A model generated the notes under the pieces. That model searched no databases and had not been told where the DNA came from. It saw only the letters and a list, made by a program, of their open reading frames with translations. The position numbers and the translations under genes were made by a program. From positions 1-37,182 of the forward strand of contig JAACFF010000013.1 of assembly GCA_009937635.1 (NCBI GenBank): a stretch of DNA of 37,182 nucleotides, given 5' to 3'. Positions 6,563 to 32,294 of this stretch are shown here, in pieces; the first letter of the stretch is position 1; each line of letters begins with the position of its first letter. The stretch comes from Chloroflexota bacterium (GTDB lineage: Bacteria; Chloroflexota; Anaerolineae; Promineifilales; Promineifilaceae).

Positions 6563-7261
6563 ATGAAAGTTGATGTTCGATACCGCCCAGCCTATGCCCT
6601 GGCCTTGGTCACACTCGACGCCAAAGAGAAGATCCAGGTTGAAGGCGGAGCAATGGTCGGCATGTCGGCCGATATGAAAATGGATACAGGAGCTTCGGGC
6701 GGATTTCTCAAATCCCTCGGTCGTAAAATGTTCGGAGGCGAAAGCTTTTTCCTGAACACCTACACTGGCGTCGTCGATGGGGATTCTGTCGCCCTGGCCC
6801 CGCCGCTGCCTGGTGATGTAGAAGTCATTGAAATGCACGGGGAGACGCTAATGGTGCAGTCTGGTTCGTATCTCGCCTCGTCGGAAGGGATTGAAGTTGA
6901 AACCAAGTGGTCTGGCGCCAAGACATTCTTTGGCAGCGAAGGCTTAATCATGTTGCGCATCAGTGGCACCGGCACGCTGATAGTCTCCAGCTACGGCGCT
7001 GTTCACGCTATGAACCTGGCCGATGGCCAAAAATATGTCGTCGATACAGGTCACCTGGTATCCTTTGAGGAGCATCTGCAATTCGACCTGAAGAAGGTGG
7101 CTGGTTGGAAGAGCACTTTATTCAGCGGTGAGGGCCTGGTGGTCGAGCTCACCGGTCCAGGCAAATTGACATTGCAAAGCCGCAGCCAGGACTCTTTCTT
7201 GTCCTGGCTTATCCCACAACTTCCCAAACAGACGAATTACGGGTCCTCAAGTAATAATTAG
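6563..7261 (+). CDS. AIM24 / TIGR00266 family protein
   Basis: This 232-residue all-beta protein matches the AIM24 family: Y-R-P-A-Y-A-L-A near the start, E-G-G-A-M-V-G-M-S, a G-G-E-S-F-F-L-N-T-Y-T stretch, L-A-S-S-E-G-I-E-V, and a C-terminal G-E-G-L-V-V-E-L-T-G-P-G-K-L-T-L-Q-S-R. Yeast Aim24 is a mitochondrial inner-membrane organising factor, and bacterial members have no firm function. The domain is complete. Translation is well supported by AAGGAG 7 bases before the ATG, directly after the structured repeat. The gene is transcribed away from the glycosyltransferase, and a structured intergenic region of about 420 bases follows. Confidence 0.88.
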   Translation: MKVDVRYRPAYALALVTLDAKEKIQVEGGAMVGMSADMKMDTGASGGFLKSLGRKMFGGESFFLNTYTGVVDGDSVALAPPLPGDVEVIEMHGETLMVQSGSYLASSEGIEVETKWSGAKTFFGSEGLIMLRISGTGTLIVSSYGAVHAMNLADGQKYVVDTGHLVSFEEHLQFDLKKVAGWKSTLFSGEGLVVELTGPGKLTLQSRSQDSFLSWLIPQLPKQTNYGSSSNN

Positions 7262-7682: not shown

Positions 7683-8123
7683 ATGAACAAAGCAAGCTTT
7701 TTCTCACGGTTTATCGCCTGGTTGGTAGATGGTTTCGCCATGGCCGTAATCGCCATTCTGCTCTCGTTGCTTCTTAGTGGTCTCACTGGCGTCGCCAGGG
7801 GCACCGATAGCTTTCTCTTGAGCGCTGCAGCGGGTACCCTGGGCGTGATGGTCTGGTTCGCCATCCTCATCTTGCAGTTCTTGTACTTTGGTTACTATTG
7901 GAACAAAAGCGGTCAAAGCATTGGCATGAAGCTCACTGGCATCAAAGTAATTCGCCAGGATGGCAACCTGATGTCCTACATACGCGCTGCATTAAGGGGC
8001 ACATTCGGCTACTGGGTAAGCGGTCTGATCTTCGGCCTTGGCTATATATGGGCTGCCTTCGACGGCGAAAAAGAGGCGTGGCACGATAAGATCTTTGACA
8101 CCTGGGTTGTCGAAGCCCAATAA
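7683..8123 (+). CDS. RDD family membrane protein
   Basis: This 146-residue protein has the RDD domain pattern: F-F-S-R-F-I-A-W-L-V-D-G in the first helix (Arg and Asp of the name), two or three further hydrophobic helices, G-Q-S-I-G-M-K-L-T-G-I-K-V after the second, and the closing A-W-H-D-K-I-F-D-T-W-V-V. RDD proteins are small integral membrane proteins of mostly unknown role; some are linked to Na+/H+ exchange or act as accessory membrane partners. AAGGAGG (7669-7675) precedes the ATG. The next gene on the same strand, 83 bases on, is the CARF-nuclease; a hairpin separates them, so co-transcription is possible but unproven. Confidence 0.88.
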   Translation: MNKASFFSRFIAWLVDGFAMAVIAILLSLLLSGLTGVARGTDSFLLSAAAGTLGVMVWFAILILQFLYFGYYWNKSGQSIGMKLTGIKVIRQDGNLMSYIRAALRGTFGYWVSGLIFGLGYIWAAFDGEKEAWHDKIFDTWVVEAQ

Positions 8124-8206: not shown

Positions 8207-9121
8207 ATGGCAATCATGAAACTAGTAGGACTTCTCGGACCCCAACCCATATTAAACCTGCTGGCCATTCGCGCCTTACAACCGCAAGAGATCTTGTTCG
8301 TCGGCACAAAGGAAACCCATGCCATAGGGCAATATTTACAAGGCCTGGCAGGCAGCAAGGCCAAAGTTCACCAGACAGAGATCTACGATCCTTATGATGC
8401 GCCCTACATGATCAAGGCTATTAACAAGAAGTTGAGCAAGCTTGGTTGGCGCTCGGATGAGACGCTTTTTGATCTTTCCGGTGGCAGCAAGTTGATGTTC
8501 TATGCCGCGACCGAATTGGCCAAGGCTCGTGAAAGTCCGGCGGCGGATATTGAACGTGTTGGCTACCGCTACCGACTCCGGCAGTTCGAATTTCAAGATC
8601 ATCAAGTAGTTATGATCCGTGACGAATACCTGCCCAGCCTGATCAGCATTGCCGATTATCTGCAATGCTACCTGCCCGGTTTCCACGAAGACGGCTTCAG
8701 CCGCGATGGGCACGGCCGTGTAGATATCGGAGGCCGATTCGAAAAAGCGGTTTACGATGCCCTGGCCCCGCATGTGGATGAAGTTATGGCCGGGGTACGG
8801 CCGTCCGGCGTGGCTAAGCAAATTGAAATCGACCTCGTCGTGCGCCAGGGCAATAACGTGGGCATCATCGAGGCCAAGACGGGGATCAAGAAAGCGGGCA
8901 TCGATCAGCTTGACACAGCCGGCAACCCTCATTACCTGGGTGATTTCCTGGCCAAGATGCTCGTCACCGGCCGTTATCTTCCCCGTGCTCACAAAGCTCT
9001 GGCCACCGCTCAAGAGATTCGCGTCATTGAGCTGCCGGGCTACAGCGATCGCGCCGGCCTCCCCTCCCAGGACAAACAGCGACTGGTCCAAACCGTACAA
9101 CAAGCCCTCGCAGGCCGCTAG
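8207..9121 (+). CDS. Orphan CARF-nuclease of the Card1/Can2 (DUF1887) type
   Basis: This 304-residue protein has two parts. Residues 1-135 look like a CARF domain: I-L-F-V-G-T-K-E (29-36) and F-D-L-S-G-G-S-K-L-M (88-97), the counterpart of the N-x-T-G-G-T-K loop that binds cyclic oligoadenylate. Residues 170-260 look like a PD-(D/E)xK nuclease: G-G-R-F-E-K-A-V-Y (Glu179), E-I-D-L-V-V (Asp209), I-I-E-A-K-T-G (Glu222, Lys224) and Gln234. Card1 and Can2 are type III CRISPR accessory nucleases that cut single-stranded RNA and/or DNA after cA4 binding. This one is shorter, apparently lacking much of the middle region of Card1 (about 370 residues). No CRISPR array or cas gene lies in the window. 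No clear Shine-Dalgarno precedes either ATG (8207 or 8216). Family is fairly certain; ligand and target are not. Confidence 0.82.
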   Translation: MAIMKLVGLLGPQPILNLLAIRALQPQEILFVGTKETHAIGQYLQGLAGSKAKVHQTEIYDPYDAPYMIKAINKKLSKLGWRSDETLFDLSGGSKLMFYAATELAKARESPAADIERVGYRYRLRQFEFQDHQVVMIRDEYLPSLISIADYLQCYLPGFHEDGFSRDGHGRVDIGGRFEKAVYDALAPHVDEVMAGVRPSGVAKQIEIDLVVRQGNNVGIIEAKTGIKKAGIDQLDTAGNPHYLGDFLAKMLVTGRYLPRAHKALATAQEIRVIELPGYSDRAGLPSQDKQRLVQTVQQALAGR

Positions 9122-9133
9122 GCACACATAATC

Positions 9134-9168
9134 AAAAGTCCAACCTCCCCCAGAAGTTGGACTTTTTT
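9134..9168 (+). terminator. Strong rho-independent terminator
   Basis: AAAAGTCCAAC (9134-9144) pairs with GTTGGACTTTT (9156-9166) across an 11-base loop and is followed by more T residues to 9168. It lies 12 bases after the CARF-nuclease stop and cleanly ends that transcription unit. Confidence 0.88.
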
Positions 9169-9248: not shown

Positions 9249-11537
9249 ATGGCTGGCTCTGTAGTACATTCCGAGGTTGCAGCGCCTGAATTACCGTCAG
9301 ATGCGGAAAAGCATCTGTTGGCAGCAGTCGTTGGTCGCAAGCGTCTCCTGCTTAACCAGGAACATCTTGTGGCCGGGTTGCTGTTGCTTATCGCTGTGGC
9401 CTTCAACCTTGTGGCTCTCTATCCCGAGGTGGCGATCAAAGCGCCAATGCTCAATGATGGTGTTTTGCACGTCCTGGCTCTGGAGCGGGTAGCAGCAGCA
9501 TTAGATAAGGGGCAGATAGCCATCGATCTGTGGTTGCCTGGCGTCGCCCTGGGCTATCCTCTCTTTCACTATTACCAGCATCTGCCCTATGTCGCCCAAG
9601 CGGCTGTGTTCCACCTCTTACAGGAAAGGGTAGCCTTGCCAGATCTTTTCCGCTGGACCCATTACCTGCTCTTGAGCTTCTTCCCCATTTCCATTTACTG
9701 GTCTATGCGCCGCTTTGGTTTCCAGCGCCTGACAGCGGCGATGAGTGGATTCGTTGCATCGCTGTTAGCCACGAATGGGCTTTATGGCTTCGATTTCAGC
9801 AGCTATACCTGGTCAGGTTATGGCTTGTACACCCAACTTTGGGGCATGTTCTTCCTGCCGCCGGCTCTGGCTTCGGCCACTATTTACCTGCGCTCGGGCC
9901 GCGGTCTCCTGTTAGCCACTTTATTGCTGGCCATTACCGCCCTTTCTAACCTGGTCCTCGGTTATGTGGCCTTTGTCTCCTTGGCGGCACTTTTCTTTCT
10001 GCCACTATTGGGTCCGGCGACGCAAGAAAAACGTTCCTGGCTTCTCTGGCGCAGGGCCAAACGTTTGCTGCTGTTGTTGGCTCTGGTAGCCTTGGCGACC
10101 GCCTACTTCTGGATACCGTTTATACTGGATAGCCCCTATATAAACCGCAGCGTCTGGGAAGAGGCGGGCAAAGTGGAAGCGAACGGGATGCGCTGGACTT
10201 TATCAACCGTTGTCAGAGGGGAGCTGTTCGATTACGGCCGTTTCCCTGCCTTGACCCTGTTAGCGACAATCGGCCTGGTCATCTGCCTCTGGCGTTGGCG
10301 GGAGGAACGTTATCGCATTCCAGTTATCCTTTCCCTGCTCTGGCTGCTGCTCTATTTCGGCTGGCCTACCTGGGATGGGTTGTTGGACTTCTTGCCCTTA
10401 AGCAGCTCTTTGCACCTGCATCGCTTTATCGCCGGCGTACATCTGGGCGGGATCTTCCTCATGGGCATCGGCCTTGCTCTTCCCTGGCAGTGGGCCTTTT
10501 CCAAAGGCAAACTTGGCAGCTTAGCGACCGTGGCCATCTTCATTGTGTTACTCCTTATCCCTGTCTATAAGGAACGCAGAGCGTATCTGGTTAACAACGA
10601 GCGTTTGATGGCACAGAGCAAAGCAGCCCTTGAGCTGGAGAAAGCAGATCTCGACGCGCTTATGGCCACCTTGCGAAGTTTGCCCCCGGGCAGAGTATAT
10701 GCGGGCAATGGCGCCAACTGGGGCAAAGCATACACCGTCGGCGCCGTGCCGCTCTACGCCATACTCAACAGCGCCAGGCTGGATATGGTAGGCTATCTTT
10801 ACCACGCCCTTTCGCTCAATGCCAACATCCAGGTGCTATTTGATGAAAGCAGGCTTGAGCATTATGAACTGTTTAACGTGCGTTACGTGGTCGCTCCGGC
10901 CGGGCAGGAATTCCCAGAGTTTGTCCATCTCGTGGCCCCCTTTGGCCGGCATCGATTGTACCAGGTGCGTACCAGCGGTTACTTTGAGCTAATCAAATCA
11001 GGTAATTCGATTCCTATAAACAATGAGAACTTTTACACGGCCGTCTCGCGCTGGTTGAATAGCGACGGGCCAGGGCAAAAAGAACATCCCATCCTGGTTT
11101 GGCAGGGTCCAATCGCTGAAATTGGGCGGACCCTTAGCACAAGCGAGGAGTGTGAAACCGATCTTTTGGCTCAAGCGCCGACTCATGCTTTCTACAGCCA
11201 CCTCATCTCCGAAACAGTCGAAGAGGATGCCTATTCGGCCGTCGTTTATGTTGAGCGCCCTAGCTGCCTGATACTGAAAACGTCGTACCATCCCAACTGG
11301 CGCGCGACGGTTGACGGCGTTGAAACGCAGACCGCCATGTTGATGCCCAGCTATGTGGGGCTAAAAGTGGTTCCGGGCACGCACCTCGTGCGCATCGAAT
11401 ATCATCCAAGACGTCAGAAAGGATATCTCTCCCTGGCCGCAATCCTGATCCTCTCCCTTATGCTTCTCCTGCAACTGAGACACGGCGTGATAAAGCGCGT
11501 CAAGCAGATCAGGAGCCAGGTATTTCCACGGCCGTAA
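9249..11537 (+). CDS. Large polytopic membrane protein, PTPS-related/YfhO-like
   Basis: This 762-residue protein has about twelve to fourteen predicted membrane segments spread over residues 35-420 plus a last one near residue 730, and a large extracytoplasmic C-terminal domain. The stretch G-Y-P-L-F-H-Y-Y-Q-H-L-P-Y (about residues 100-112) is the hallmark of the 6-pyruvoyl-tetrahydropterin-synthase-related membrane family (a GT-C-like fold). The region H-P-N-W-R-A-T-V-D-G followed by V-P-G-T-H-L-V-R-I-E-Y-H-P is typical of YfhO-type proteins implicated in glycosylation of lipoteichoic acid or glycolipids. It probably handles polyprenyl-linked sugars at the cell surface; the substrate is unknown. 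It has its own promoter and a terminator before it, so it is probably monocistronic. Confidence 0.78.
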   Translation: MAGSVVHSEVAAPELPSDAEKHLLAAVVGRKRLLLNQEHLVAGLLLLIAVAFNLVALYPEVAIKAPMLNDGVLHVLALERVAAALDKGQIAIDLWLPGVALGYPLFHYYQHLPYVAQAAVFHLLQERVALPDLFRWTHYLLLSFFPISIYWSMRRFGFQRLTAAMSGFVASLLATNGLYGFDFSSYTWSGYGLYTQLWGMFFLPPALASATIYLRSGRGLLLATLLLAITALSNLVLGYVAFVSLAALFFLPLLGPATQEKRSWLLWRRAKRLLLLLALVALATAYFWIPFILDSPYINRSVWEEAGKVEANGMRWTLSTVVRGELFDYGRFPALTLLATIGLVICLWRWREERYRIPVILSLLWLLLYFGWPTWDGLLDFLPLSSSLHLHRFIAGVHLGGIFLMGIGLALPWQWAFSKGKLGSLATVAIFIVLLLIPVYKERRAYLVNNERLMAQSKAALELEKADLDALMATLRSLPPGRVYAGNGANWGKAYTVGAVPLYAILNSARLDMVGYLYHALSLNANIQVLFDESRLEHYELFNVRYVVAPAGQEFPEFVHLVAPFGRHRLYQVRTSGYFELIKSGNSIPINNENFYTAVSRWLNSDGPGQKEHPILVWQGPIAEIGRTLSTSEECETDLLAQAPTHAFYSHLISETVEEDAYSAVVYVERPSCLILKTSYHPNWRATVDGVETQTAMLMPSYVGLKVVPGTHLVRIEYHPRRQKGYLSLAAILILSLMLLLQLRHGVIKRVKQIRSQVFPRP

Positions 11538-15442: not shown

Positions 15443-15677
15443 TTCCTGGATTTTGGGCAAAGGATCTCTGCCCACTAGCGTGGTCTCTTCTATATAACTC
15501 AGATACAATAACTAAAACCTCGATGGGCGACTGAAGATGCGTTCAGATAACAATCACGTTGAAACCAAACCTCCCGTGACAGGGCGAAAACGGCCGTCTA
15601 ACAACCTGTTCAGATGCATAGATTGCAAACTATATATCTACATAGTGCGCGCGCGCTTGATCCCCTATTGTGGGTAT

Positions 15678-15693
15678 GGTGACACTTGTCACA
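15678..15693 (+). promoter_or_regulatory. Crp/FNR-family-like operator before the SulP gene
   Basis: GGTGA-CACTTG-TCACA matches the Crp half-site pattern TGTGA-N6-TCACA in nine of ten fixed positions. It lies 19 bases upstream of the preferred SulP ATG (15712). Such a site is attractive because the transporter itself ends in a Crp-like cNMP-binding fold. The position relative to a promoter is unknown, and the match rests on one site. Confidence 0.35.
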
Positions 15694-15711
15694 GACCTTG
15701 GATGGAATAGA

Positions 15712-17952
15712 ATGGATCCCAATAAGAGTCAACAATCCACTACGGCCCGGCTAAATCTGACGACTTTAACGCCCAGTGTGGTGGGCGGGCTGGTTTCTGG
15801 CTTTTACGTGGCAATCTTCATGTTCGCCTACGCGTCGCTGATTTTCACCGGAGAACTAACAGCTTTCCTGCCAAATGGCATTGGCGCTTTACTGTTCGGG
15901 GCTATCGCGGTCGGCTTGGTTATGGCCTTGACCAGCGCTATACCTAGTCTGATCGCCTCGCCGAACGACAACCCGGTGGCCATCTCGGCCATCCTGGCAA
16001 TTGCCATCACCGAAAGTATGTCCAGCTCGGCATCGCCAGCGGTTACTTTTACCACGGTGATGGTCAGCTTTGCACTGAGTTCGTTGCTTGTCGGTGTTTC
16101 GTTCATATTGATCGGCCGTTTCAAACTGGCTAATCTGGTCCGTTTCATCCCTTACCCCGTGATAGGCGGTTTCCTGGCTGGAACAGGATTGATCATATTT
16201 CGTGGCGCATTTACCGCGTCCGCCGGTGTGCCATTGACCTTGTCGACTCTAGATGAGCTGATTCAATTCGATCTTCTGAAATTGTGGGTTCCGGCGCTGA
16301 TCTTCGGCATTGTCATGATGGTCGTCCTGAATCGTTACAGTCACTTCTTGATTGTACCTGGTGTGATCTTATTAGCCGTAGCCATCTTTTATATTGGCCT
16401 GTTACTTAGCGGCACGTCAATTGATCAGGCTATTGCCGGGGGCTGGCTCATCGCGCCTGTAGATGAAGGCAGCATCTGGAGGCCGATTCTGCCGGCCGAC
16501 CTCATTAACGCTGATTGGGGGGTGATTCTCGGTCAGATCGGTACGATCCTGTCCCTGGTTCTTGTCAGCATCGTCGCCGTTTTGCTCAATACAACGGCCC
16601 TTGAATCTGCCTTCCAACGGGACATTGATATGGGGCATGAGATGAAATTCGCCGGCCTGGCCAATATGATCGCCGCCATTGGCGGCAGCGTCGCTGGCTA
16701 TCATTACGTGGGCATGTCAGTGCTGATGGACAAGATGAAAGCCAAATTGCGCCTGGTCGGCGTGATCGTAGCCCTGGTCTGTATCTTCGTCCTGATCTTC
16801 GGGGCCTCTTTCGTCTCCCTGGTACCCAAATTTATACTTGGTGGCCTGGCCTATTTCATTGGCCTGGCCTTCCTCTATGACTGGATCTACATTAGCGCCA
16901 AGAAGCTATCCCGGCTCGACTTTGCGATCATCATTGCCATAGCGATTGTGATGCTGTTATTCGGGCCTCTCGAGGGTGTGGTTTTCGGGCTTGTAATCAC
17001 GGCCGTCCTTTTTATCGTCAACTACAGCCGCAAGGATGTAATTCGACACCGGTTGTCAGGTGATAGCTATCACAGTCATGTTGATCGCCCTCAAGCCCAC
17101 CGTCAGGCACTAATTGAAAAGGGTTCGCAAATCCACATATTGACGTTGCAAGGCTTCGTCTTTTTTGGCTCATCTAATACCTTACTGCAAGGCATTCGCA
17201 ACATCATCACCGATTCGGACGAGCCTGGCGGCTACTTAATCCTTGACTTTGAAAAGGTACTGGGCCTGGATTCATCCGCCTTACACAGTTTTGTCAAGAT
17301 TCGCCAGACAGCGTCCGAACGTGGTTTCACCGTGGTCTATGCTCACCTCTCCGAAGAAGGCCGACAGGCTTTTGAACACGAGAGCTTCATAGATGGTTCG
17401 CCCCTGGTATCCCATCTCTTCCCCGATCTAGACCATGCCCTTGAGTGGTGTGAGGACCAACTGCTGAAAGCCAACGACATTGCGGTTGCTATTGATTCTC
17501 ATTCCTGGCAAGAGGAGATGGCGGAAGCATTTAATGATGTCGAGCTAGCCGAACGATTTATGACTTATCTCGAAGAAGAACGATCGGCGCCAGGTGAACA
17601 CCTGGCCATCCAGGGAGGACCATGCGACGCCATCCATTTCATGACCGCTGGTCGAGCGACCCTGCAGCTTGAATTTGAGAATGGGGAGTCAGTGCGCTTG
17701 CGAACAGTTGGACCTGGGTCGCTGATTGGCCTTGAAGGCACATTGCACCCTCATGTTCATCACTATGCCGAATCGGTAGTTGCCGATGAGGCCAGCACCT
17801 ATTTTCGTCTATCGACCGCAGCCCTGGCTCGGTTAAAAGAAAACGATGGCCCAGTAGCAGTTAAGTTTCAAGAGTTCCTCCTGGGTTATCTGGCAACGCA
17901 ATATACCAGGAGCACCGAACTGCTCAAAGATGTCTTGGCCTTAGAAGAATAA
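15712..17952 (+). CDS. SulP-family anion transporter with STAS and cNMP-binding-like domains
   Basis: This protein of about 746 residues has a SulP membrane core (residues ~20-440, about 12-14 hydrophobic segments, including F-I-P-Y-P-V-I-G-G-F and A-L-E-S-A-F), a STAS domain (~463-585, with L-D-F-E-K-V-L-G-L-D-S-S-A) and a C-terminal cyclic-nucleotide-binding-like domain (~620-735). SulP proteins transport sulfate, bicarbonate or other anions. In the last domain the phosphate-binding cassette is degenerate: the expected G-E...R-x-A is replaced by G-L-E-G-T-L...H-H-Y-A-E, so cNMP binding is doubtful. An in-frame GTG at 15670 would add 14 residues. The ATG at 15712 is preferred because the Crp-like site then lies upstream, but neither start has a good ribosome binding site. 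Confidence 0.88.
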   Translation: MDPNKSQQSTTARLNLTTLTPSVVGGLVSGFYVAIFMFAYASLIFTGELTAFLPNGIGALLFGAIAVGLVMALTSAIPSLIASPNDNPVAISAILAIAITESMSSSASPAVTFTTVMVSFALSSLLVGVSFILIGRFKLANLVRFIPYPVIGGFLAGTGLIIFRGAFTASAGVPLTLSTLDELIQFDLLKLWVPALIFGIVMMVVLNRYSHFLIVPGVILLAVAIFYIGLLLSGTSIDQAIAGGWLIAPVDEGSIWRPILPADLINADWGVILGQIGTILSLVLVSIVAVLLNTTALESAFQRDIDMGHEMKFAGLANMIAAIGGSVAGYHYVGMSVLMDKMKAKLRLVGVIVALVCIFVLIFGASFVSLVPKFILGGLAYFIGLAFLYDWIYISAKKLSRLDFAIIIAIAIVMLLFGPLEGVVFGLVITAVLFIVNYSRKDVIRHRLSGDSYHSHVDRPQAHRQALIEKGSQIHILTLQGFVFFGSSNTLLQGIRNIITDSDEPGGYLILDFEKVLGLDSSALHSFVKIRQTASERGFTVVYAHLSEEGRQAFEHESFIDGSPLVSHLFPDLDHALEWCEDQLLKANDIAVAIDSHSWQEEMAEAFNDVELAERFMTYLEEERSAPGEHLAIQGGPCDAIHFMTAGRATLQLEFENGESVRLRTVGPGSLIGLEGTLHPHVHHYAESVVADEASTYFRLSTAALARLKENDGPVAVKFQEFLLGYLATQYTRSTELLKDVLALEE

Positions 17953-22447: not shown

Positions 22448-22495
22448 ACACGACCGTGCCTTTCATATCAAGTCCAATTTGATGTGGATTTAGTG

Positions 22496-25400
22496 ATGTC
22501 CAGAAAGAACACCTTTTTCCTCATGTTTGCTACGCTGGCGGTCTTGATGGCCGCCATTTTGTACGTCATGCTCTTGATCGTGAGGAACGAAAGCGCGATC
22601 GCTGCCGCTGAGAATCGCCGCTTGGAATCTTACAAATTGGCCGATGAATTACGCCAGACCTCCGATGATTTGACGCGCATGGCCCGAACCTATGTCGTCT
22701 CCGGGGATACGCGTTACATCGCTTACTTCAAGCGTATCGTCGACATCCGTGACGGCGAAGCTCCGCGCCCCGTTGATTACAACAGTATCTATTGGGATTT
22801 CGTCATCGCTACCGGTCAGAAACCCCGTCCAGATGGGCAGCCGGCTGCCTTGGAAGCGCTCATGCGCGAGATGAACTTCACGGCCGATGAGTTTGCCTTG
22901 TTGGGGCAAGCTCAGAATCGTTCCGATGCCCTTATCGAGCTGGAAGAGCGGGCCATGAACGCTGTCAAGGGACGTTACCCCGACGAAAACGGCGACTTCG
23001 TGATTGTAGATAAACCAGATTTCCTACTGGCGCGCGAGCTTGTGCATGGTGATGCCTATCACAACAACAAAGCCGAGATCATGGAACCCATCAACGAGTT
23101 TTTTGACAAGGTTGATGCCCGTACAACGGCCGAAGTAGCCGCTCTCCGGGCCCAAGGAAATCGACTGACCGTGCTGGCCGTGGGATTAATGCTCTCGGCG
23201 CTACTTATCATGATCATTTCCTATCTGGTGATTCAACATCGCATCATTGGCCCGGCCGAGGAGCAGCTTACAGAGGGGCAAGAACAGGCCGCACAAGGGC
23301 GGGTTGACGATGATGGGGCCGCGTCATTTTGGAATGCCTGGCCTCTTCTGGCCATTGCCCTTGTGGCCATCATCGGTATCGCCGCCTTCACCTGGTGGAA
23401 CCAATCCATACTCACACAGCGCACTCGCCAGGAATTGAGTAACTCGCTGACGACGGTGATGAATACCACCAACAAGGCAGCCGTAGATTGGATGGGCGAC
23501 CGGGAAGATGAAGCGCGGATTTGGGCCAACCTGCCTACTGTTCGTCAAGTCTGCCAAGATTTGCGGGCGGCCGGGCCGAATCAGGAAATGCGGTTGAGTA
23601 TTCTTTCCGAATCCGGCCTGAGCGAGGAACTGGACCCGCTGCTCAGCGACCGTCGCTATGAAGGATTCTTGCTCACTTCAGCGGAGGGCACGATCTTGGC
23701 CAGCCTCCAGGCGGGTGAGGTTGGGTCTGAAATTGGCGATCAAGTCCCGGAGCGTTTCTTTAGTCGGGCCATGACCGGACCTCGTTATTCCGGTGTTAGC
23801 TTACCCAGGCGTTTGCTCGGTGCTGAGGCCACAATGTTCGCCATGGCAGCAGTCCGTGATCTCCAAGGCAACCCCTTGTGCGGCTTGGCTCTGCGCATTG
23901 ATCCGGAAAGAGAATTCACTGAAATCTTGCAACGCGGTCGCATGGGCCAGTCGGGTGAGAGTTATGCCTTCAACGGCGCCGGGCAGTTGATCAGCGAGAG
24001 CCGCTTTGACGACGACTTGCGCCAGATTGGCCTGATACCGGAAGGGCAGCGTGGTATCCTCAACGTGGATATTCGCGATCCGGGGGGGAATCTTGTTGAG
24101 GGATACGAGCCGGACGTGCCCCGCGAGGAACAGCCACTGACGTTAATGGCTGGTGAAGCGACGGCCGGAAGACCAGGTCAAGATCTTGAAGGTTACAATG
24201 ATTATCGCGGCGTGCCGGTCATTGGCGCCTGGACCTGGGACGAGACCTATGGATTTGGCGTCACTACCGAGATCGACGTCGCTGAGGCTTACGCATCTTT
24301 GCGCGCGACACGCGAACAGGGCCTGGCCACTTCTGGTTTGACTATTTTCCTGATCGTAGGCCTCACTGGATTATTCATTTACAGCCGTTCAAAGATGGCG
24401 GTTGCGCAAGCAGCATTACAGTCTGAACTCGTCGAAAGAAAGCAAATAGAGGCGCAGTTGCAAAGAAGCTTCTTAGAAGCAAAGCTTCTCTATCGTTCGG
24501 CTGAACTCGCGGCGGAGGCCAATTCGGTCAACGTGGCATTGCAGAATGTGCTCAATGAGATATGTGAGCTTACCGGTTGGCCGGTTGGCCATGTCTATAC
24601 TGCGGGTGATGATGATCAGGTTGACATTTTATTCCCCACAGAAATCTGGTACCTCTCCGATCCCGAGGTTTTCTCAGAATTTCGAAGGGTTACCGAACAA
24701 ACGACTTTTGCCTTTGGAATTGGCCTCCCAGGACGCGTCCTGGAGTCTGGAAAGGTGGCCTGGATAGAAAACGTGCAGGAGGATCTTAACTTTCCCCGCC
24801 GCAACCTGACCGAAAACCTGGTGGTGAAAGGAGCGTTTGCTGTTCCTGTGATAGTCTCCGGTGCCGTCGTGGCTGTTCTTGAATTCTTCTCTGACCAGGT
24901 TGTGCAGCCGGACGAAAATCTAATTAGAGTGATGAACCACGTCGCAGAGCAACTGAGTCTCGTCTTCGAACGGCGCCAGACGGCGGAAACGCTGCTAGAA
25001 GCAGCCGAAGCAGCCGAAGCGGCAAACCGGGCCAAGAGCGCCTTCCTGGCCAATATGAGCCATGAGCTGCGAACACCTATGAACGCCATCATTGGCTACA
25101 GTGAGATGCTGGCCGAGGATGCCGAGGATGAAGGCTACGACGAATTGATCCCGGACCTAGAGAAGATCAACAGCGCCGGTCGCCACCTGTTGGGCCTCAT
25201 CAATGACGTCCTGGACCTGTCCAAAATCGAAGCAGGGCGCATGGACCTCTACCTGGAACGCTTTGATTTGAGACAAGTTTTGGATGAGGTGATGGCTACC
25301 GCCTCACCGCTCGTGGCCACGAAAAACAACCAGTTTGTGGCCGACTTCGCCGCTGATTTGGGCGATATGCGCGCCGATTTGACCAAGGTACGACAAACAT

Positions 25401-26527
25401 TGCTAAATCTCTTGTCAAATGCGGCTAAGTTTAGTGAAGATGGGATTGTCACCCTTTCAGCCCGGCGAGAGGCGCGCGATGATGAGGATTGGATCGTGTT
25501 AACTGTTTCCGATACAGGAATCGGTATCTCAGAAGATAAGCTTGACAGCGTATTTGAAGAATTCACCCAGGCAGATGATTCAACCACGCGTGAATATGGG
25601 GGTACGGGGCTTGGTTTGCCTATTAGCAGGCGTTTTTGCCTTATGATGGGAGGTGATCTTTCGGTGACTAGCGAACCTGGTAAAGGTTCCACCTTCACCG
25701 CTGAACTGCCGGCTGAGGTGTCAGTTTCCTCCTCGGCCGGCACGGAACTCCCGGCTGATGACCAAGGTACATTGGAGAAATTGGCCGGTGAGCGATCCAT
25801 ATTGGTCATTGACGACGATCCTAATGCGAGGGAATTGTTGCTGCGCTCGCTTGAGCTTGACGGCCACTTTGTCGTAACAGCCGGCAGTGGAGCGGAAGGG
25901 CTGGAATTAGCCCGGCGCTTGCAGCCGATGCTCATCACCCTGGACATCATGATGCCCGGCTTGGATGGCTGGGCCGTGTTACGAACCCTCAAAGCCGATC
26001 CCGAGCTGCATCATATCCCCGTGATCATGGTCTCCATCATCGGCGACAGGGATTTGGGATATTCACTGGGCGCGGTTGAATCTCTGACAAAACCGGTGGA
26101 CCGCAAGAAACTGCTGGAAGTTGTGCAAAAGTTTACGGACAAAGGGGGCGGGCACGTCCTGATTGTCGAGGACGACGACGATGTCCGCACTCTACTAAGG
26201 CGCACCCTCGAAGAAGTACAATGGGCCGTGTTCGAGGCGGAAAATGGCGCTGTAGCCCTGCAATGCGTGCACGAGCAGAAGCCAGACCTGATCCTGCTTG
26301 ACCTGATGATGCCCGTTATGGACGGATTTGAATTTGTGCAGAAGTTGCGCGAAGAAGAAGAGAATCGTTCGATTCCCATTATCGTCGTCACGGCAAAAGA
26401 TCTGACCGAAGAAGACCGCCGGCAGCTCGCTGGAGGAGTTGAACATATCATCGCTAAGGGCGCCTTCACCCAGGGCGACATGTTACAACAAGTTCGTGAT
26501 CTGGTATCAAGGTATGGGGTGGATTAA
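22496..26527 (+). CDS. Hybrid sensor histidine kinase with GAF, transmitter and two receivers
   Basis: This protein of about 1343 residues appears to have two stacked sensor modules. The first is an extracytoplasmic helical domain between membrane segments at ~7-30 and ~223-246. The second is a Cache-like domain (~305-610) between segments at ~280-300 and ~613-632. Then come a coiled region, a GAF domain (~661-831), HisKA with M-S-H-E-L-R-T-P-M-N (His856), HATPase_c (~961-1071, D-T-G-I-G-I and G-G-T-G-L-G-L), receiver 1 (Asp1150) and receiver 2 (Asp1269). All catalytic residues are present. The ATG at 22496 is preferred over the GTG at 22484; neither has a strong Shine-Dalgarno. The ProX-like gene starts one base after the stop codon, so the two are cotranslated, which suggests the binding protein feeds this kinase's sensor. 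Confidence 0.9.
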   Translation: MSRKNTFFLMFATLAVLMAAILYVMLLIVRNESAIAAAENRRLESYKLADELRQTSDDLTRMARTYVVSGDTRYIAYFKRIVDIRDGEAPRPVDYNSIYWDFVIATGQKPRPDGQPAALEALMREMNFTADEFALLGQAQNRSDALIELEERAMNAVKGRYPDENGDFVIVDKPDFLLARELVHGDAYHNNKAEIMEPINEFFDKVDARTTAEVAALRAQGNRLTVLAVGLMLSALLIMIISYLVIQHRIIGPAEEQLTEGQEQAAQGRVDDDGAASFWNAWPLLAIALVAIIGIAAFTWWNQSILTQRTRQELSNSLTTVMNTTNKAAVDWMGDREDEARIWANLPTVRQVCQDLRAAGPNQEMRLSILSESGLSEELDPLLSDRRYEGFLLTSAEGTILASLQAGEVGSEIGDQVPERFFSRAMTGPRYSGVSLPRRLLGAEATMFAMAAVRDLQGNPLCGLALRIDPEREFTEILQRGRMGQSGESYAFNGAGQLISESRFDDDLRQIGLIPEGQRGILNVDIRDPGGNLVEGYEPDVPREEQPLTLMAGEATAGRPGQDLEGYNDYRGVPVIGAWTWDETYGFGVTTEIDVAEAYASLRATREQGLATSGLTIFLIVGLTGLFIYSRSKMAVAQAALQSELVERKQIEAQLQRSFLEAKLLYRSAELAAEANSVNVALQNVLNEICELTGWPVGHVYTAGDDDQVDILFPTEIWYLSDPEVFSEFRRVTEQTTFAFGIGLPGRVLESGKVAWIENVQEDLNFPRRNLTENLVVKGAFAVPVIVSGAVVAVLEFFSDQVVQPDENLIRVMNHVAEQLSLVFERRQTAETLLEAAEAAEAANRAKSAFLANMSHELRTPMNAIIGYSEMLAEDAEDEGYDELIPDLEKINSAGRHLLGLINDVLDLSKIEAGRMDLYLERFDLRQVLDEVMATASPLVATKNNQFVADFAADLGDMRADLTKVRQTLLNLLSNAAKFSEDGIVTLSARREARDDEDWIVLTVSDTGIGISEDKLDSVFEEFTQADDSTTREYGGTGLGLPISRRFCLMMGGDLSVTSEPGKGSTFTAELPAEVSVSSSAGTELPADDQGTLEKLAGERSILVIDDDPNARELLLRSLELDGHFVVTAGSGAEGLELARRLQPMLITLDIMMPGLDGWAVLRTLKADPELHHIPVIMVSIIGDRDLGYSLGAVESLTKPVDRKKLLEVVQKFTDKGGGHVLIVEDDDDVRTLLRRTLEEVQWAVFEAENGAVALQCVHEQKPDLILLDLMMPVMDGFEFVQKLREEEENRSIPIIVVTAKDLTEEDRRQLAGGVEHIIAKGAFTQGDMLQQVRDLVSRYGVD

Positions 26528-26528
26528 T

Positions 26529-27563
26529 ATGACAAGAAACCCCCTTGGTAGATCTATTGTTTTTATAATGGCATTCATGGTGTTTGCCGTCGCCTGCAAC
26601 AATTTGCCAGGACGCGTTGGTAGCTTGCCCGGCCAGGGCACAACGGTTCGTATGGGACAAGCAACGTGGGACACCGGTCTATTTCAAGCACAGATTTTTA
26701 AGGCATTGCTGGAGGAACTTGGCTATGAGGTGAAAGCGCCGGAGACGGTTGATACAATAGCCTTTTATTTCTTTAGCGCCCAACGAGATCTCGATTTCTG
26801 GGCCAATGGTTGGTTTCCATTGCATGACCGCTATCTTGAATTCGAGGATGTCGCCGGGAAAATCCAACCGGTTGGTTTTCAAGTGGCAAAAGGTGCCTTA
26901 CAAGGGTATATGGTTGACAAGGCAACGGCCGACAAATTGGGCATTACCAACCTGGCTGACCTGCAAGATCCGGAATTCGCCGCCGTTTTTGATGATGATG
27001 GCGATGGCAAAGCTGATTTGATCGGTTGCAATGTGGGTTGGGGCTGTGAACAGGTCATCGATACTCAGCTAGATGCCCTCGAATTACGTGACACGGTCAC
27101 GCATGTGCAGGGTGATTATTCGCAATTGATGCAGGACACCTTAGCCCGCTACCAACAAGGCCAGCCGGTACTCTTCTATACCTGGACGCCGAACTGGACT
27201 GTTTCCGCCATGGCTCCCGGCGAAGACGTCATGTGGTTGGGCGTACCATCCTCTTCTCCAGCTGATCGCGATACGGAAGTTGCCAGCATCCCTGGCTGCC
27301 TGGAAGATCCCTGCAATATGGGATTTGAGCCCAGCGACATTCGCGTTGTCGCCAACTCCCAGTTCCTGGCTGAGAACCCGTCTGCCGCCACTCTGTTTGA
27401 ATTGGTGAAGATTCCTCTGGCAGACATAGCAAATCAAAACATACGCATGTCTGCCGGCGAGAACAGCGAAGAAGATATCCGCTTGCACGCGGAAGCGTGG
27501 ATAGACGCCAACCGTGAACAGGTTGATTTGTGGCTGGAAGCCGCCCGGCTGGCAACGCAGTAG
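26529..27563 (+). CDS. Glycine-betaine/proline (ProX/OpuAC-type) substrate-binding protein
   Basis: This 344-residue secreted binding protein has a signal sequence ending A-V-A-C (Cys23, a weak lipobox). The mature part matches the ProX/OpuAC fold: V-R-M-G-Q-A-T-W-D-T-G, L-L-E-E-L-G-Y-E-V, D-F-W-A-N-G-W-F-P-L-H-D and V-L-F-Y-T-W-T-P-N-W. Trp residues in these places form the aromatic cage for quaternary amines. A D-D-D-G-D-G-K-A-D loop resembles a calcium-binding loop. No permease or ATPase gene is nearby; instead the gene sits between two hybrid kinases, one base after the first and 33 bases before the second. It probably serves as a ligand-presenting sensor component, though a transporter elsewhere could also use it. 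ATG 26529 is chosen because longer starts lie inside the kinase gene and would lose the signal. Confidence 0.85.
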   Translation: MTRNPLGRSIVFIMAFMVFAVACNNLPGRVGSLPGQGTTVRMGQATWDTGLFQAQIFKALLEELGYEVKAPETVDTIAFYFFSAQRDLDFWANGWFPLHDRYLEFEDVAGKIQPVGFQVAKGALQGYMVDKATADKLGITNLADLQDPEFAAVFDDDGDGKADLIGCNVGWGCEQVIDTQLDALELRDTVTHVQGDYSQLMQDTLARYQQGQPVLFYTWTPNWTVSAMAPGEDVMWLGVPSSSPADRDTEVASIPGCLEDPCNMGFEPSDIRVVANSQFLAENPSAATLFELVKIPLADIANQNIRMSAGENSEEDIRLHAEAWIDANREQVDLWLEAARLATQ

Positions 27564-27596
27564 TCGATTGAGCGCTTAGAACCTTGAGCTGTTATC

Positions 27597-30500
27597 ATGT
27601 TTAAACATCTCAAAATAAGAACCAAAATTCTCCTGGCTTTCGCGATCGTCGCCATCATTGCTGTGGGCACGATTGCCTTAGTTGCTTTTGGTATCGGCCG
27701 TTCAACGCTGGAGCAAGAATCCTTCAACAAGTTAACGGCCGTGCGCGAGATGAAGGCCAGCCAGATTGAAGATTATTTCCAGCTGATAGAAGATCAAGTT
27801 CTCACCCTTTCCGCGGATCGCATGATCATTGACGCCATGAGGGAGCTGGACGGCGCCTATCATGATATCCCCGCTGAACTCGCCTTCGATGATGCGGACA
27901 TGGAACAGCTAAACATTGATCTTGAAAACTACTATCAAGAGGAGTTCTTCCGCAGATTAATTCCTAACCTGCTCAGAGAGCCCCTGTTATCCGACTACTA
28001 TCCGCAAAATATTGAAGCCAGAATCCTGCAAAATCAATACATCATTGATAATCCCCATGATACTGGCTCCAAACATCTTCTAAATAGCGCAGATGACGGC
28101 AGCACGTACAGCGCGGCCCATGAAATCTACCATCCCATCATCCGCGATTACCTGGAGCGGTTTGGTTATTATGACATCTTTCTGGTAGCCAATGACGGTA
28201 ACATCGTCTACTCCGTATTCAAGGAGGTTGACTACGGGACCTCTCTCCTCGATGGTCCCTATCGGGACAGTAACTTTGCCGAGGTCTTCAGATCCGCTTT
28301 GGAAGCAGACGACGGGGAGTTCGTTTCCTTGGTCGACTTCGAGCCCTACGATCCCTCCTACAACGCACCGGCGGCCTTCACTGCTTCTCCAATTTATGAT
28401 GGGGACGAGAGAGCTGGTGTGCTGATTTTCCAAATGCCCATCGATAGGATTAACGATGTCATGACCAACAAACAGGATTGGTCCGGGGTCGGCCTGGGAG
28501 AATCTGGAGAAACCTACTTAGTGGGTGATGATAATCTGATTCGCAATCAGTCAAGGTTCCTAATCGAGGACAGTGAGAATTATTTCAATACACTAGAAGA
28601 GATCGGCGTCCCGCTGACGACTCGGGCCAGAATTCGCAATCTCGACAGTACAATTGGTTTGCAAGAAGTGGATACTGCGGGCACGGAGGCGGCCCTAAAC
28701 GGGGAAACGGGCACCGCCATCTTCCCCGATTATCGGGGTGTACCTGTATTATCTTCCTATGCCCCGCTGGACATAAAGGATTTGGATTGGGCGATCATGA
28801 GCGAGATCGACGAAGCCGAAGCCTTCTCCTCCATCCGTTCCCTTGGTCGACGTCTTGCTATTGGCTCCCTTGGCATCATCGCCTTCATCATCATCGCCGC
28901 AATCATCTTTTCAAGAACAATTACCAGGCCGATAGAGCACCTTCAATCACAGGCCGGTGAAATCTCAGCCGGAAATCTAGATACCAAGATCAGTGTCAAC
29001 ACCAAAGACGAAATCAATGATCTGGCCCAGGCGCTGGAGTCGATGCGCCTCTCTAATAAGGACCTCATCGACGATCTGGCAGATATCAACCAGAATCTGG
29101 AAAACCTGGTGGGCGAACGAACGGCCGAACTAGAGGCCTCGGAACGTCAAACCAGTTCCATAATCGAACTGTCCAGCGACGCCATCATTGTGATCGATGA
29201 TGATGGACAAGTGCTGGTTTGGAATGACAAAGCCGAACAGCTTTTCGGATATGCCAGGGAAGATATGATTGGCAATCCGATGGATCTGATCATACCCGGC
29301 GCTCACAGAGCCAGGCACGACAAGGCATTTGCACGGGCTACCGGCGCGCATCGTCTCAATAAACCTGGGGAAATCCATGAAATAACTGGCCAACGCAAGG
29401 ATGGGCAGGAATTTCCAGTTGAGTTATCCCTTTCTCATTGGCAACTTGCAGGCAAGGATTTCTTTTCTGCCAATATTCGCGATATCACTGAGCGCAAGAA
29501 TGCAGAACAGGCTATCCGGTATCGAGAAGAACGCATTCGCTCCATTGTCGAGATTGCACCGGATGCGATCATCAGCATCAATGGTGAGCAGAACATAGTC
29601 ATGTTCAACTCCCAGGCCGAGAGGGTTTTTGGCTACACAGCCGCTGAAGTATTGGGGCAGCCTCTAGCCATGCTGATGCCGGAAAAATCCCATGCTGTTC
29701 ACCCGCATGAAGTCAATAAATTCCTGAATGAATCAGCCAATACCCGCATAATGGACAGCCGGCGTGAGATTGCAGGGCGCCGCAAAGATGGCACGATCTT
29801 TCCTGCCGAAGCCGGCATTTCCAAACTTGAAATCGATGGGCAAGTTATTTTTACCACTTTTTTCCGCGATATCACGGAACGTAGAGAGGCGGAAAGGAAG
29901 CTGACGGAAAGCGAAGCCAAACACCGGACCATTTTCCAAAACTCACCTCTCGGCTTGATCTTGTTCAACGATGAGGGATTCATCGTCGACTGCAATGAGC
30001 ATTTCGTTGAGTTGATGGGCTCCAAAAGAGAACAATTGATCGGCTTTCACACTTTGCAAGAAGCGACCGACCCGGCGGTACGAGAAGGGTTAGGGAAAGC
30101 GATAAACGGTGAGCAATATGCTTTCGAAGGCGCCTATACTTCGGCGACCGGCGGCAAGACCCGTTATCTCAGAATCATCTATAATCCTGTCAACCCTGAT
30201 CACATCCCGACGGAAGTCATTGCTACCCTTGAAGATATCTCTGAGCGTATAGAGTTGGAACAAGAGATGCGTGCAAGCGAGTCCCGTTTCCGCAGTCTCT
30301 TTGAGGATTCCCCTATATCCTTGTGGGAGGAAGATTTCTCGGCGATCAAGCAGCTCATTGACGAATTGCGTGCCGCAGGGATCGATGATTTTGCAAGTTA
30401 CTTTGACCAGCATCCGGAGGTCGTGAGCCAGGCTTCCTCGCTCATATTGGTTGAGAATGTCAATCAAGCGACCCTAGATCTTTATGGCGCGACAAGCAAG

Positions 30501-32294
30501 CAAGAACTCCTGGGCAAACTTGATACCATCTTCACCGATCAATCAACTGATGCATTCAAACATGAACTGATAGCGCTTTCCAATGGCCAGACTTACTACC
30601 AGGGGGAGATCGTCAATCGTAACTTGAATGGCGCGCTGATCGATTGCATCGTCGTCTTCTCAGTTGCGCCAGGATATGAAGACAGTTGGCAAAAGGTATT
30701 CGTTTCCATCACCGACATCACCGATCGCAAGGAGATGGAGAGTAAACTTCAACTGGCTATGCACGATGCTGAGGCGGCTAACCGCGCCAAGAGCACGTTC
30801 CTCGCCAATATGAGCCACGAGCTGCGTACGCCCATGAACGCCATCATTGGCTACAGTGAGATGTTGGCTGAGGACGCGGAAGATGAAGGGTACGACGAAT
30901 TTGTGCCCGATTTGGAAAAGATCAATACCGCAGGCCGGCATTTACTTTCACTGATTAACAGTGTCCTGGACCTATCCAAGATTGAAGCAGGGCGCATGGA
31001 CCTTTACCTGGAACGTTTTGACCTGAGGCAGATGCTTGATGAAACCGTAACCACGGTGACACCGGTTGTGACCAAAAATCACAACGATTTTGTGATTGAC
31101 TTCGCCGAGGATCTGGGAAATGTCCGTGCTGACATGACGAAACTGCGCCAGGCGCTGGTAAACTTGCTGTCCAATGCTTCCAAATTTACCGAGAATGGCG
31201 CTGTCACGTTAACTGCCAGGCGAAAAATGTATCAGGATGGGGAGTGGATCAGTCTCGCCGTTGCCGATACGGGTATCGGCATACCGGAAGACAAGCTGGA
31301 ACATATCTTTGAGGAATTCTCGCAGGCTGACGAATCGACGACTCGTAACTTCGGTGGTACAGGTTTGGGCCTGGCCATCAGCCGCCGTTTCTGTCGCATG
31401 ATGGGCGGCGATATTCTCTTGAGCAGCGAAGTGGGAAAAGGTTCGACCTTCACCATTGAGATACCGGCTGAAGTCAAGGCGGAAATGGTCACGCAAGATC
31501 CGTCTGCCCTTGCCGCGCAGGCGACACCTATCCCCCATATCCCGCTTGGTGAGCACCCCATCCTGATCATCGACGATGATCCGCAAGCTCGCGAGTTAAT
31601 ACAGCGCACATTGCAGGCTGATGGTTACAGCGTGGCGTTGGCTGCCAGTGGAGAAGAAGGTCTGGAACTGGCGCGCCAATTACAGCCATCCCTGGTCACG
31701 CTTGATATTATGATGCCGGGTATGGATGGTTGGACAACATTGCGTCAATTTAAGGCTGATCCCGCGCTTGAACATATCCCGGTGGTCATGATATCTATCG
31801 TCGGCGACAAAGAAATGGGCTACACGCTCGGCGCTTTGCAATCGCTGACAAAGCCGGTAGACCGGGAGCAGCTTTTGCAACTGGTTCAGCAGTATGCCGG
31901 GTCACAAGGTGGTGGTCGGGCCCTTGTCGTAGAGGATCACGAGCCGGTTCGCTCTCTCATGCGCAGAGCCCTTGAAGAAGCGGGCTGGAATGTGGCCGAA
32001 GCGGAAAATGGTGCCCTTGCTTTACAGCGAGTCCACGAACATAAGCCCGATCTGATCTTGCTGGACTTGATGATGCCCGTGATGGATGGTTTTGAATTCG
32101 TCTTGCAACTGCGCAAGCAAGAGCAGTACTGGGATATTCCCATCGTCGTGGTTACATCCAAAGACTTGACCGATGAAGATCGCGAGCGCCTGGTTGGCGG
32201 CGTCGAAATGATCATTGACAAGGGCGCCTATACACAAGATGAACTTCTCGATCAGCTTCGTAGCTACGTTGCGCAACATGACAGTGCGGCTTAG
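27597..32294 (+). CDS. Hybrid sensor histidine kinase with Cache, HAMP, four PAS domains and two receivers
   Basis: This 1565-residue kinase has a membrane segment (~10-32), an extracytoplasmic Cache-type sensor (~34-405), a second segment (~417-438), HAMP (~440-495), PAS domains starting near 519, 646, 774 and 896, HisKA (M-S-H-E-L-R-T-P-M-N, His1074), HATPase_c (~1181-1294), receiver 1 (Asp1370) and receiver 2 (Asp1490). The transmitter and receivers are very close to those of the kinase at 22496, including a long shared stretch around I-I-G-Y-S-E-M-L-A-E-D-A-E-D, while the sensors differ. This indicates duplication of the output cassette with a new input. With the ProX-like protein between them, both kinases may read related external cues and share downstream partners such as the stand-alone receiver at 19882. 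Confidence 0.9.
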   Translation: MFKHLKIRTKILLAFAIVAIIAVGTIALVAFGIGRSTLEQESFNKLTAVREMKASQIEDYFQLIEDQVLTLSADRMIIDAMRELDGAYHDIPAELAFDDADMEQLNIDLENYYQEEFFRRLIPNLLREPLLSDYYPQNIEARILQNQYIIDNPHDTGSKHLLNSADDGSTYSAAHEIYHPIIRDYLERFGYYDIFLVANDGNIVYSVFKEVDYGTSLLDGPYRDSNFAEVFRSALEADDGEFVSLVDFEPYDPSYNAPAAFTASPIYDGDERAGVLIFQMPIDRINDVMTNKQDWSGVGLGESGETYLVGDDNLIRNQSRFLIEDSENYFNTLEEIGVPLTTRARIRNLDSTIGLQEVDTAGTEAALNGETGTAIFPDYRGVPVLSSYAPLDIKDLDWAIMSEIDEAEAFSSIRSLGRRLAIGSLGIIAFIIIAAIIFSRTITRPIEHLQSQAGEISAGNLDTKISVNTKDEINDLAQALESMRLSNKDLIDDLADINQNLENLVGERTAELEASERQTSSIIELSSDAIIVIDDDGQVLVWNDKAEQLFGYAREDMIGNPMDLIIPGAHRARHDKAFARATGAHRLNKPGEIHEITGQRKDGQEFPVELSLSHWQLAGKDFFSANIRDITERKNAEQAIRYREERIRSIVEIAPDAIISINGEQNIVMFNSQAERVFGYTAAEVLGQPLAMLMPEKSHAVHPHEVNKFLNESANTRIMDSRREIAGRRKDGTIFPAEAGISKLEIDGQVIFTTFFRDITERREAERKLTESEAKHRTIFQNSPLGLILFNDEGFIVDCNEHFVELMGSKREQLIGFHTLQEATDPAVREGLGKAINGEQYAFEGAYTSATGGKTRYLRIIYNPVNPDHIPTEVIATLEDISERIELEQEMRASESRFRSLFEDSPISLWEEDFSAIKQLIDELRAAGIDDFASYFDQHPEVVSQASSLILVENVNQATLDLYGATSKQELLGKLDTIFTDQSTDAFKHELIALSNGQTYYQGEIVNRNLNGALIDCIVVFSVAPGYEDSWQKVFVSITDITDRKEMESKLQLAMHDAEAANRAKSTFLANMSHELRTPMNAIIGYSEMLAEDAEDEGYDEFVPDLEKINTAGRHLLSLINSVLDLSKIEAGRMDLYLERFDLRQMLDETVTTVTPVVTKNHNDFVIDFAEDLGNVRADMTKLRQALVNLLSNASKFTENGAVTLTARRKMYQDGEWISLAVADTGIGIPEDKLEHIFEEFSQADESTTRNFGGTGLGLAISRRFCRMMGGDILLSSEVGKGSTFTIEIPAEVKAEMVTQDPSALAAQATPIPHIPLGEHPILIIDDDPQARELIQRTLQADGYSVALAASGEEGLELARQLQPSLVTLDIMMPGMDGWTTLRQFKADPALEHIPVVMISIVGDKEMGYTLGALQSLTKPVDREQLLQLVQQYAGSQGGGRALVVEDHEPVRSLMRRALEEAGWNVAEAENGALALQRVHEHKPDLILLDLMMPVMDGFEFVLQLRKQEQYWDIPIVVVTSKDLTDEDRERLVGGVEMIIDKGAYTQDELLDQLRSYVAQHDSAA

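What the first reader, a model, noticed from the sequence alone, without database searches (positions are those of the whole stretch)
8207..9121. Orphan Card1/Can2-like CARF-nuclease with altered ligand loop and no CRISPR context
The protein carries both halves of the Card1/Can2 architecture: a V-G-T-K-E strand end, an S-G-G-S-K loop, and E179/D209/E222-x-K224 nuclease residues. It lacks the middle region of Card1, and the usual N-x-T-G-G-T-K reads D-L-S-G-G-S-K. No CRISPR array or cas gene lies in the surrounding 37 kb. An RDD membrane protein precedes it by 83 bases and a strong terminator follows. It may be a stand-alone nucleotide-activated nuclease responding to a signal other than type III CRISPR cA4, or a remote effector of a type III system elsewhere. 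The family link is established knowledge; an independent role is inference.
Basis: partly seen in the sequence, partly recalled or inferred. Interest (0 to 1): 0.78.

Follow-up and report, generated by a model that had tools for sequence, protein, structure and literature searches.

The report
Orphan CRISPR-type nuclease with remodelled sensor
A bacterial enzyme of a kind that normally cuts nucleic acids on a chemical alarm from type III CRISPR sits here in a genome where no type III CRISPR was found; its cutting half looks intact while its alarm-sensing half has changed, which makes it a good test of what such orphan enzymes now sense.

Summary
The 304-aa ORF at 8207-9121 is a full-length member of a known family of short CARF-PD-(D/E)xK nucleases (PADLOC PDLC01887, E=4e-67), related to Can2/Card1. 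Catalytic residues E179, D209, E222 and K224 are intact. In 29 other homologues, pocket positions N89, T91 and Y114 are invariant; the window and its only congener read D, S and D. Their CARF halves are the most diverged of the set, their nucleases ordinary. Most homologues lie in type III loci, and every other genome tested has Cas10 or RAMP genes; the window's own (95%-complete metagenome assembly, 658 contigs) shows neither, nor Cas1, but holds a truncated relic of Csx15, a cA4 ring-nuclease family. The sister species has two type III loci, each with its own CARF-nuclease, and keeps this third copy elsewhere. Most likely it is a Can2-type effector that left type III control and had its sensor remodelled, comparable to orphan VC1899; ligand unknown. 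The missing middle region is family-wide; the RDD neighbour is not conserved, an AIM24 gene is. Absence of type III could still be an assembly gap.

The parts
8207..9121 (+). CARF-PD-(D/E)xK nuclease, 304 aa, PADLOC family PDLC01887
   Evidence: E=4e-67, residues 6-301
8207..8656 (+). CARF sensor domain, residues 1-150
   Evidence: VIA-align Z 14.8 to Can2 7bdv over model residues 3-158; profile match to Can2, Card1, VC1899
8240..8242 (+). P12, at the position of Can2 Asp20 (E, A, G or D in the other homologues)
8306..8308 (+). T34, at the position of Can2 Thr42, kept
8471..8491 (+). ligand loop D89-L-S-G-G-S-K95 in place of N-x-T-G-G-T-K; K95 (Can2 Lys99) kept
   Evidence: N89, T91, T94 and K95 are the same in 29/29 other homologues
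8546..8557 (+). D114-I-E-R117 in place of Y-x-x-S/T (Can2 Tyr118 and Ser121, cA4 contacts)
   Evidence: contacts from PMC7969007
8657..9118 (+). PD-(D/E)xK nuclease domain, residues 151-304
   Evidence: no reliable fold obtained
8741..8743 (+). catalytic E179
   Evidence: 29/29 homologues
8831..8833 (+). catalytic D209
   Evidence: 29/29 homologues
8870..8878 (+). catalytic E222-A-K224
   Evidence: E 28/29, K 29/29 homologues
9134..9166 (.). 15-pair hairpin with T-run, likely transcription terminator
6563..7261 (+). AIM24/TIGR00266 protein; neighbour shared with the sister species (79% identical), order swapped
7683..8123 (+). RDD membrane protein, 83 bases upstream; not conserved as a neighbour

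Best explanation
It is a Can2-type CARF-PD-(D/E)xK nuclease whose ancestor was a type III CRISPR effector. In this genus the gene came to lie away from the type III loci and its sensor domain changed strongly, while the nuclease stayed under ordinary constraint. By analogy with Can2 (inferred), it works as a homodimer: a ligand in the CARF dimer interface opens the nuclease cleft and the enzyme cuts DNA and/or RNA without sequence specificity. Because side-chain contacts that Can2 makes with cA4 are gone (Tyr118 to Asp, Ser121 to Arg) and an invariant Asn is now Asp, I think it no longer answers to cA4 as its relatives do, and either senses a different small molecule or protein partner, or has low activity not regulated by cA4 as reported for VC1899. 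Shown: family, intact catalytic residues, pocket changes shared by two species, sensor-only divergence, no type III gene found in this assembly. Inferred: dimer, allostery, ligand change, and a role in defence or stress.
For: PDLC01887 4e-67. CARF fold Z 14.8 to Can2. Pocket positions 89, 91 and 114 invariant in 29 homologues, changed in both genus members; E179, D209 and K224 invariant throughout. Genus CARF half 25-27% identical to the rest against 33-40% for the others; nuclease half 34-36% against 28-37%. Stem branch 2.16 in the CARF tree, 0.51 in the nuclease tree, while other clades have roughly similar lengths in both; in the full-length and nuclease trees the pair falls in a 14-member clade whose other 12 are inside type III loci. 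Remote copies in G163, G145, G239 and G386 keep the canonical pocket, so position alone does not explain the change. Purifying selection between the two species: pN 0.28 against saturated pS 0.82, in both domains. No Cas10, RAMP, Cas1, mCpol or SMODS match in G000; broken Csx15 on G000:C381. The sister's two type III loci each have their own CARF-nuclease. Precedent: VC1899, orphan, diverged pocket, not regulated by cA4 (PMC7969007).
Against: T34 and K95, two of the four contacts shared by Can1 and Can2, are kept, so some cA4 binding may survive. The sister has type III loci that could signal in trans. Only two species of the genus are held. The genome is a metagenome assembly (95% complete, 8% contaminated, 658 contigs) in which a CRISPR locus could be missing. 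No ligand, activity or oligomer was tested, and no reliable full model was obtained.
Confidence: 0.6

Rival explanations
1. It is a remote but ordinary type III effector: it still binds cA4 (or another cyclic oligoadenylate) made by a type III complex encoded elsewhere and missed in this assembly.
For: Sister G001 has two cas10 genes and this gene on another contig. Homologues outside the core locus exist in G163, G145, G239 and G386. K95 and T34 are kept. Contig C381 ends close to a Csx15 relic.
Against: The other remote copies keep the canonical pocket and, in the three f60 species, sit beside an intact Csx15; this one does neither. Three type III or adaptation families are absent from G000 although each rings in the sister. 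Both loci of the sister already carry a CARF-nuclease.
Confidence: 0.22
2. It is a decaying leftover: after type III was lost, the sensor drifts freely and the gene will be lost.
For: Csx15 has already decayed in the same assembly. The sensor diverges faster than the nuclease.
Against: The frame is open in both species, synonymous sites are saturated while amino-acid changes stay limited in both domains, and catalytic residues are intact. The sister has type III loci with cas10 and shows the same pocket changes, so the change is not a mere consequence of losing type III.
Confidence: 0.13
3. It works with a neighbour (AIM24 or the RDD membrane protein) as a small defence or envelope-stress pair that supplies or senses the trigger.
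For: AIM24 lies within about 1 kb of the gene in both genus members, on the same strand.
Against: Gene order differs, RDD has no hit on the sister contig, only two genomes are available, and AIM24 is more conserved than the nuclease (79% against 57%).
Confidence: 0.05

Closest known systems
PADLOC PDLC01887 (CARF4--CARF_PDDEXK), short type III effectors, here sampled in the same phylum
   Same: Full-length match, about 300 aa, same catalytic residues, no Card1 middle region
   Different: Ligand pocket changed at otherwise invariant N89, T91, Y114; gene outside any type III locus; no cas10 found in the genome
Can2 / Card1 (PDB 7bdv, 6wxw)
   Same: CARF plus PD-(D/E)xK order, CARF fold, Lys99 and Thr42 equivalents
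   Different: About 60-80 residues shorter; Tyr118 and Ser121 equivalents replaced by Asp and Arg; no type III context
VC1899 of Vibrio cholerae (PDB 1xmx), orphan DUF1887 protein
   Same: Orphan CARF-nuclease, nuclease motif kept, cA4 site diverged with acidic residues
   Different: VC1899 changed all four shared contacts; here two are kept. This one groups with short type III effectors of its own phylum, which suggests a separate origin

Membership tests
PDLC01887 CARF4--CARF_PDDEXK | full-length profile match | tested here: met
   E=4e-67, residues 6-301 of 304, model 4-284 of 285
PDLC01887 CARF4--CARF_PDDEXK | location in or beside a type III CRISPR locus (typical of most homologues examined, not a strict requirement) | tested here: not met
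   no cas gene in the window; no Cas10, RAMP or Cas1 match in G000; incomplete assembly
Can2/Card1 | N-terminal CARF domain | tested here: met
   (Z 14.8, rmsd 2.9, 141 aligned to 7bdv)
Can2/Card1 | C-terminal PD-(D/E)xK nuclease with catalytic residues | tested here: met
   E179, D209, E222, K224 by sequence; fold not confirmed, model poor
Can2/Card1 | cA4-contact residues shared by Can1 and Can2 (Ser19, Thr42, Lys99, Tyr118) | tested here: not met
   Thr42 and Lys99 equivalents kept; Ser19 is G in the whole short family; Tyr118 is D114
Can2/Card1 | cA4-activated DNase/RNase activity, homodimer | not testable with these tools
   needs purified protein
Can2/Card1 | Pfam or NCBIfam family match above cut-off | tested here: not met
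   Pfam best DUF6997 0.033, below cut-off; NCBIfam TIGR02710 2e-5, below its cut-off
[quoted passage not shown]
   none found but the assembly is 95% complete in 658 contigs
VC1899-like orphan DUF1887 proteins | not regulated by cA4 | not testable with these tools
   reported for VC1899 only (PMC7969007)

The most novel reading that the evidence does not exclude
The genus has turned a type III effector into a stand-alone nuclease that senses a different signal, made by something other than Cas10, through a CARF pocket with two new acidic residues. No SMODS synthase was found in either genus member and no mCpol apart from the sister's own Cas10 palm, so the signal source would be unknown.
Probability: 0.35. 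Interest if true: 0.7.

Novelty: new variant of a known kind. Interest (0 to 1): 0.45.

Why it matters
What CARF proteins outside CRISPR sense is an open question; the orphan VC1899 has remained without a known ligand. This branch gives a close comparison: two species with a changed pocket and 28 full-length relatives with the canonical one, with a conserved nuclease on both sides. Swapping or testing the CARF halves would show directly whether the ligand changed, and the broken Csx15 suggests type III signalling was lost in this genome.

Tried and rejected
Direct phmmer against PDB: no hit; the profile of 30 sequences was needed. AlphaFold with the two sequences allowed by the tool gave poor models (pLDDT 47 whole, 41 nuclease); only the CARF half gave a meaningful fold search, so the nuclease fold is not structurally confirmed. 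Viral contigs: four scans, no usable homologue, one weak N-terminal match. Genome contigs: only the sister gene, Anaerolineales bacterium HKST-UBA48. G409 was labelled remote when the trees were built but lies beside a Cmr6 fragment and Csx15, so it counts as in-locus. G301 and G337, on contigs of 3.4 and 8.2 kb, cannot be placed. G420 is broken by a stop codon. RDD adjacency rejected as conserved. Whole-genome layout of G000 was not available as a file, so CRISPR arrays were looked for only in the window and, by repeats, in contig C381.

Full report
What is there. The ORF at 8207-9121 encodes 304 aa. PADLOC places it full length in CARF4--CARF_PDDEXK model PDLC01887 (4e-67); Pfam and NCBIfam have no match above cut-off. 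A profile of 30 homologues finds Can2 (9e-22), Card1 and VC1899 in the PDB. A low-confidence two-sequence AlphaFold model (pLDDT 47) still puts Can2 first for the CARF half (Foldseek 7e-7; VIA-align Z 14.8, rmsd 2.9, 141 residues). The nuclease half rests on sequence: E179, D209, E222, K224.

Homologues. Of 98 genomes (own and related), 7 have it; of 400 drawn from the phylum, 28 match at 1e-12, three of them by short partial matches; in all 52 held genomes of the family, only G000, G001 and G038 have the full gene. I aligned the window, the sister and 29 others, one of which (G420) is broken by a stop codon.

Context of the homologues. The Cas10 palm (PF22335) was found in all genomes tested except G000 and G038; G038 (78% complete) has three RAMP genes beside its copy. 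RAMPs (PF03787) were found in all but G000 and G337. By coordinates about 21 copies lie beside type III genes. Clearly apart are G163, G145 and G239 (185-360 kb from the listed RAMPs), one of two copies in G386, and G001, where the gene is on an 18-kb contig other than its two type III contigs. The G163 and G239 copies have Csx15 next door, G163 also a CARF3-HTH gene, and G145 has Csx15 at the same place, so these may remain cA4-signalling modules (Csx15 family members are cA4-specific ring nuclease or cA4 binder, PMC13148439). G409 lies beside a Cmr6 fragment. G301 and G337 are on short contigs.

The window's own genome. G000 has no match to RAMPs, Cas10 palm, Cas1, mCpol or SMODS, and PDLC01880 finds only the window gene. 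It does have a Csx15 relic at G000:C381:11137-11409: 89 residues of the C-terminal part are 63% identical to the sister's Csx15, the N-terminal part is missing and stops lie just upstream in frame. The sister's intact Csx15 lies in its type III locus on C201, beside a CARF-nuclease. This fits loss of a type III locus in G000, but the assembly is a fragmented, 8%-contaminated metagenome bin and C381 ends about 190 bases beyond the relic.

The sensor. Mapping from Can2 (contacts in PMC7969007): Thr42 = T34 and Lys99 = K95, kept; Tyr118 = D114 and Ser121 = R117, lost; Asp20 = P12. N89, T91 and Y114 are the same in 29 of 29 others, including remote copies, and changed in both genus members. Mean identity of the genus CARF half to the other homologues is 25-27%, the lowest of the set; the nuclease half is 34-36%, among the highest. 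Stem branch: 2.16 in the CARF tree, 0.51 in the nuclease tree; other clades have 1.27/1.36, 1.06/1.10, 1.14/0.77 and 0.41/0.90. In the full-length and nuclease trees the pair lies in a clade of 14 whose other 12 are in-locus effectors; in the CARF tree it stands apart on its long branch. Between the two species pN is 0.28 and pS 0.82 (saturated), so both domains are under constraint.

Neighbours. AIM24 lies close by in both species (79% identical) in swapped order; RDD does not recur on the sister contig.

Mechanism. Can2 is a cA4-activated dimer whose nuclease cleft is thought to open on binding (PMC7969007). The fold and catalytic residues here make the same output likely (inference). The input is probably different (inference): the lost contacts and added acidic residues resemble VC1899, which has weak RNase activity not regulated by cA4 (PMC7969007). 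CARF genes not linked to CRISPR are known in each CARF family (PMC4012209), so an orphan is not new as a kind; a sensor-specific change inside a type III effector family, with canonical relatives at hand, is the useful part.

Limits. No ligand or activity data; two species only; orphan status rests on an incomplete genome; no reliable nuclease model; the trees were built with G409 labelled as remote, which does not affect the placement of the genus.

Noticed in passing
L112 (G000:C381) 11137-11409, minus strand: Truncated Csx15 without its N-terminal part and with stops just upstream in frame, in a genome without other type III genes found; likely relic.
   Followed up: partly
L093 8996-11547 (G163); similar in L094, L095: Small module away from type III loci in three species of one genus: CARF-nuclease and Csx15, in G163 also a CARF3-HTH regulator, with canonical pocket.
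   Followed up: partly
L042 (G001:C201) and L043 (G001:C385): Sister species carries two type III loci (Cas10b-like and Cas10d-like), each with its own longer CARF-PD-(D/E)xK effector; the first also has a reverse transcriptase and Cas6.
   Followed up: partly
L097 and L092 (G386): Two copies of the family in one genome, one in a type III locus and one 0.9 Mb away.
   Followed up: no
L096 (G420): Homologue interrupted by a TAG codon.
   Followed up: no
window 22484-32294: Two large hybrid histidine kinases (1347 and 1565 aa) flanking an OpuAC-type substrate-binding protein.
   Followed up: no
window 15670-17952: Sulfate-permease family transporter with STAS and cyclic-nucleotide-binding domains.
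   Followed up: no
L112 1211-5926: 1571-aa ORF made of about 100-residue tandem repeats (300-base period).
   Followed up: no
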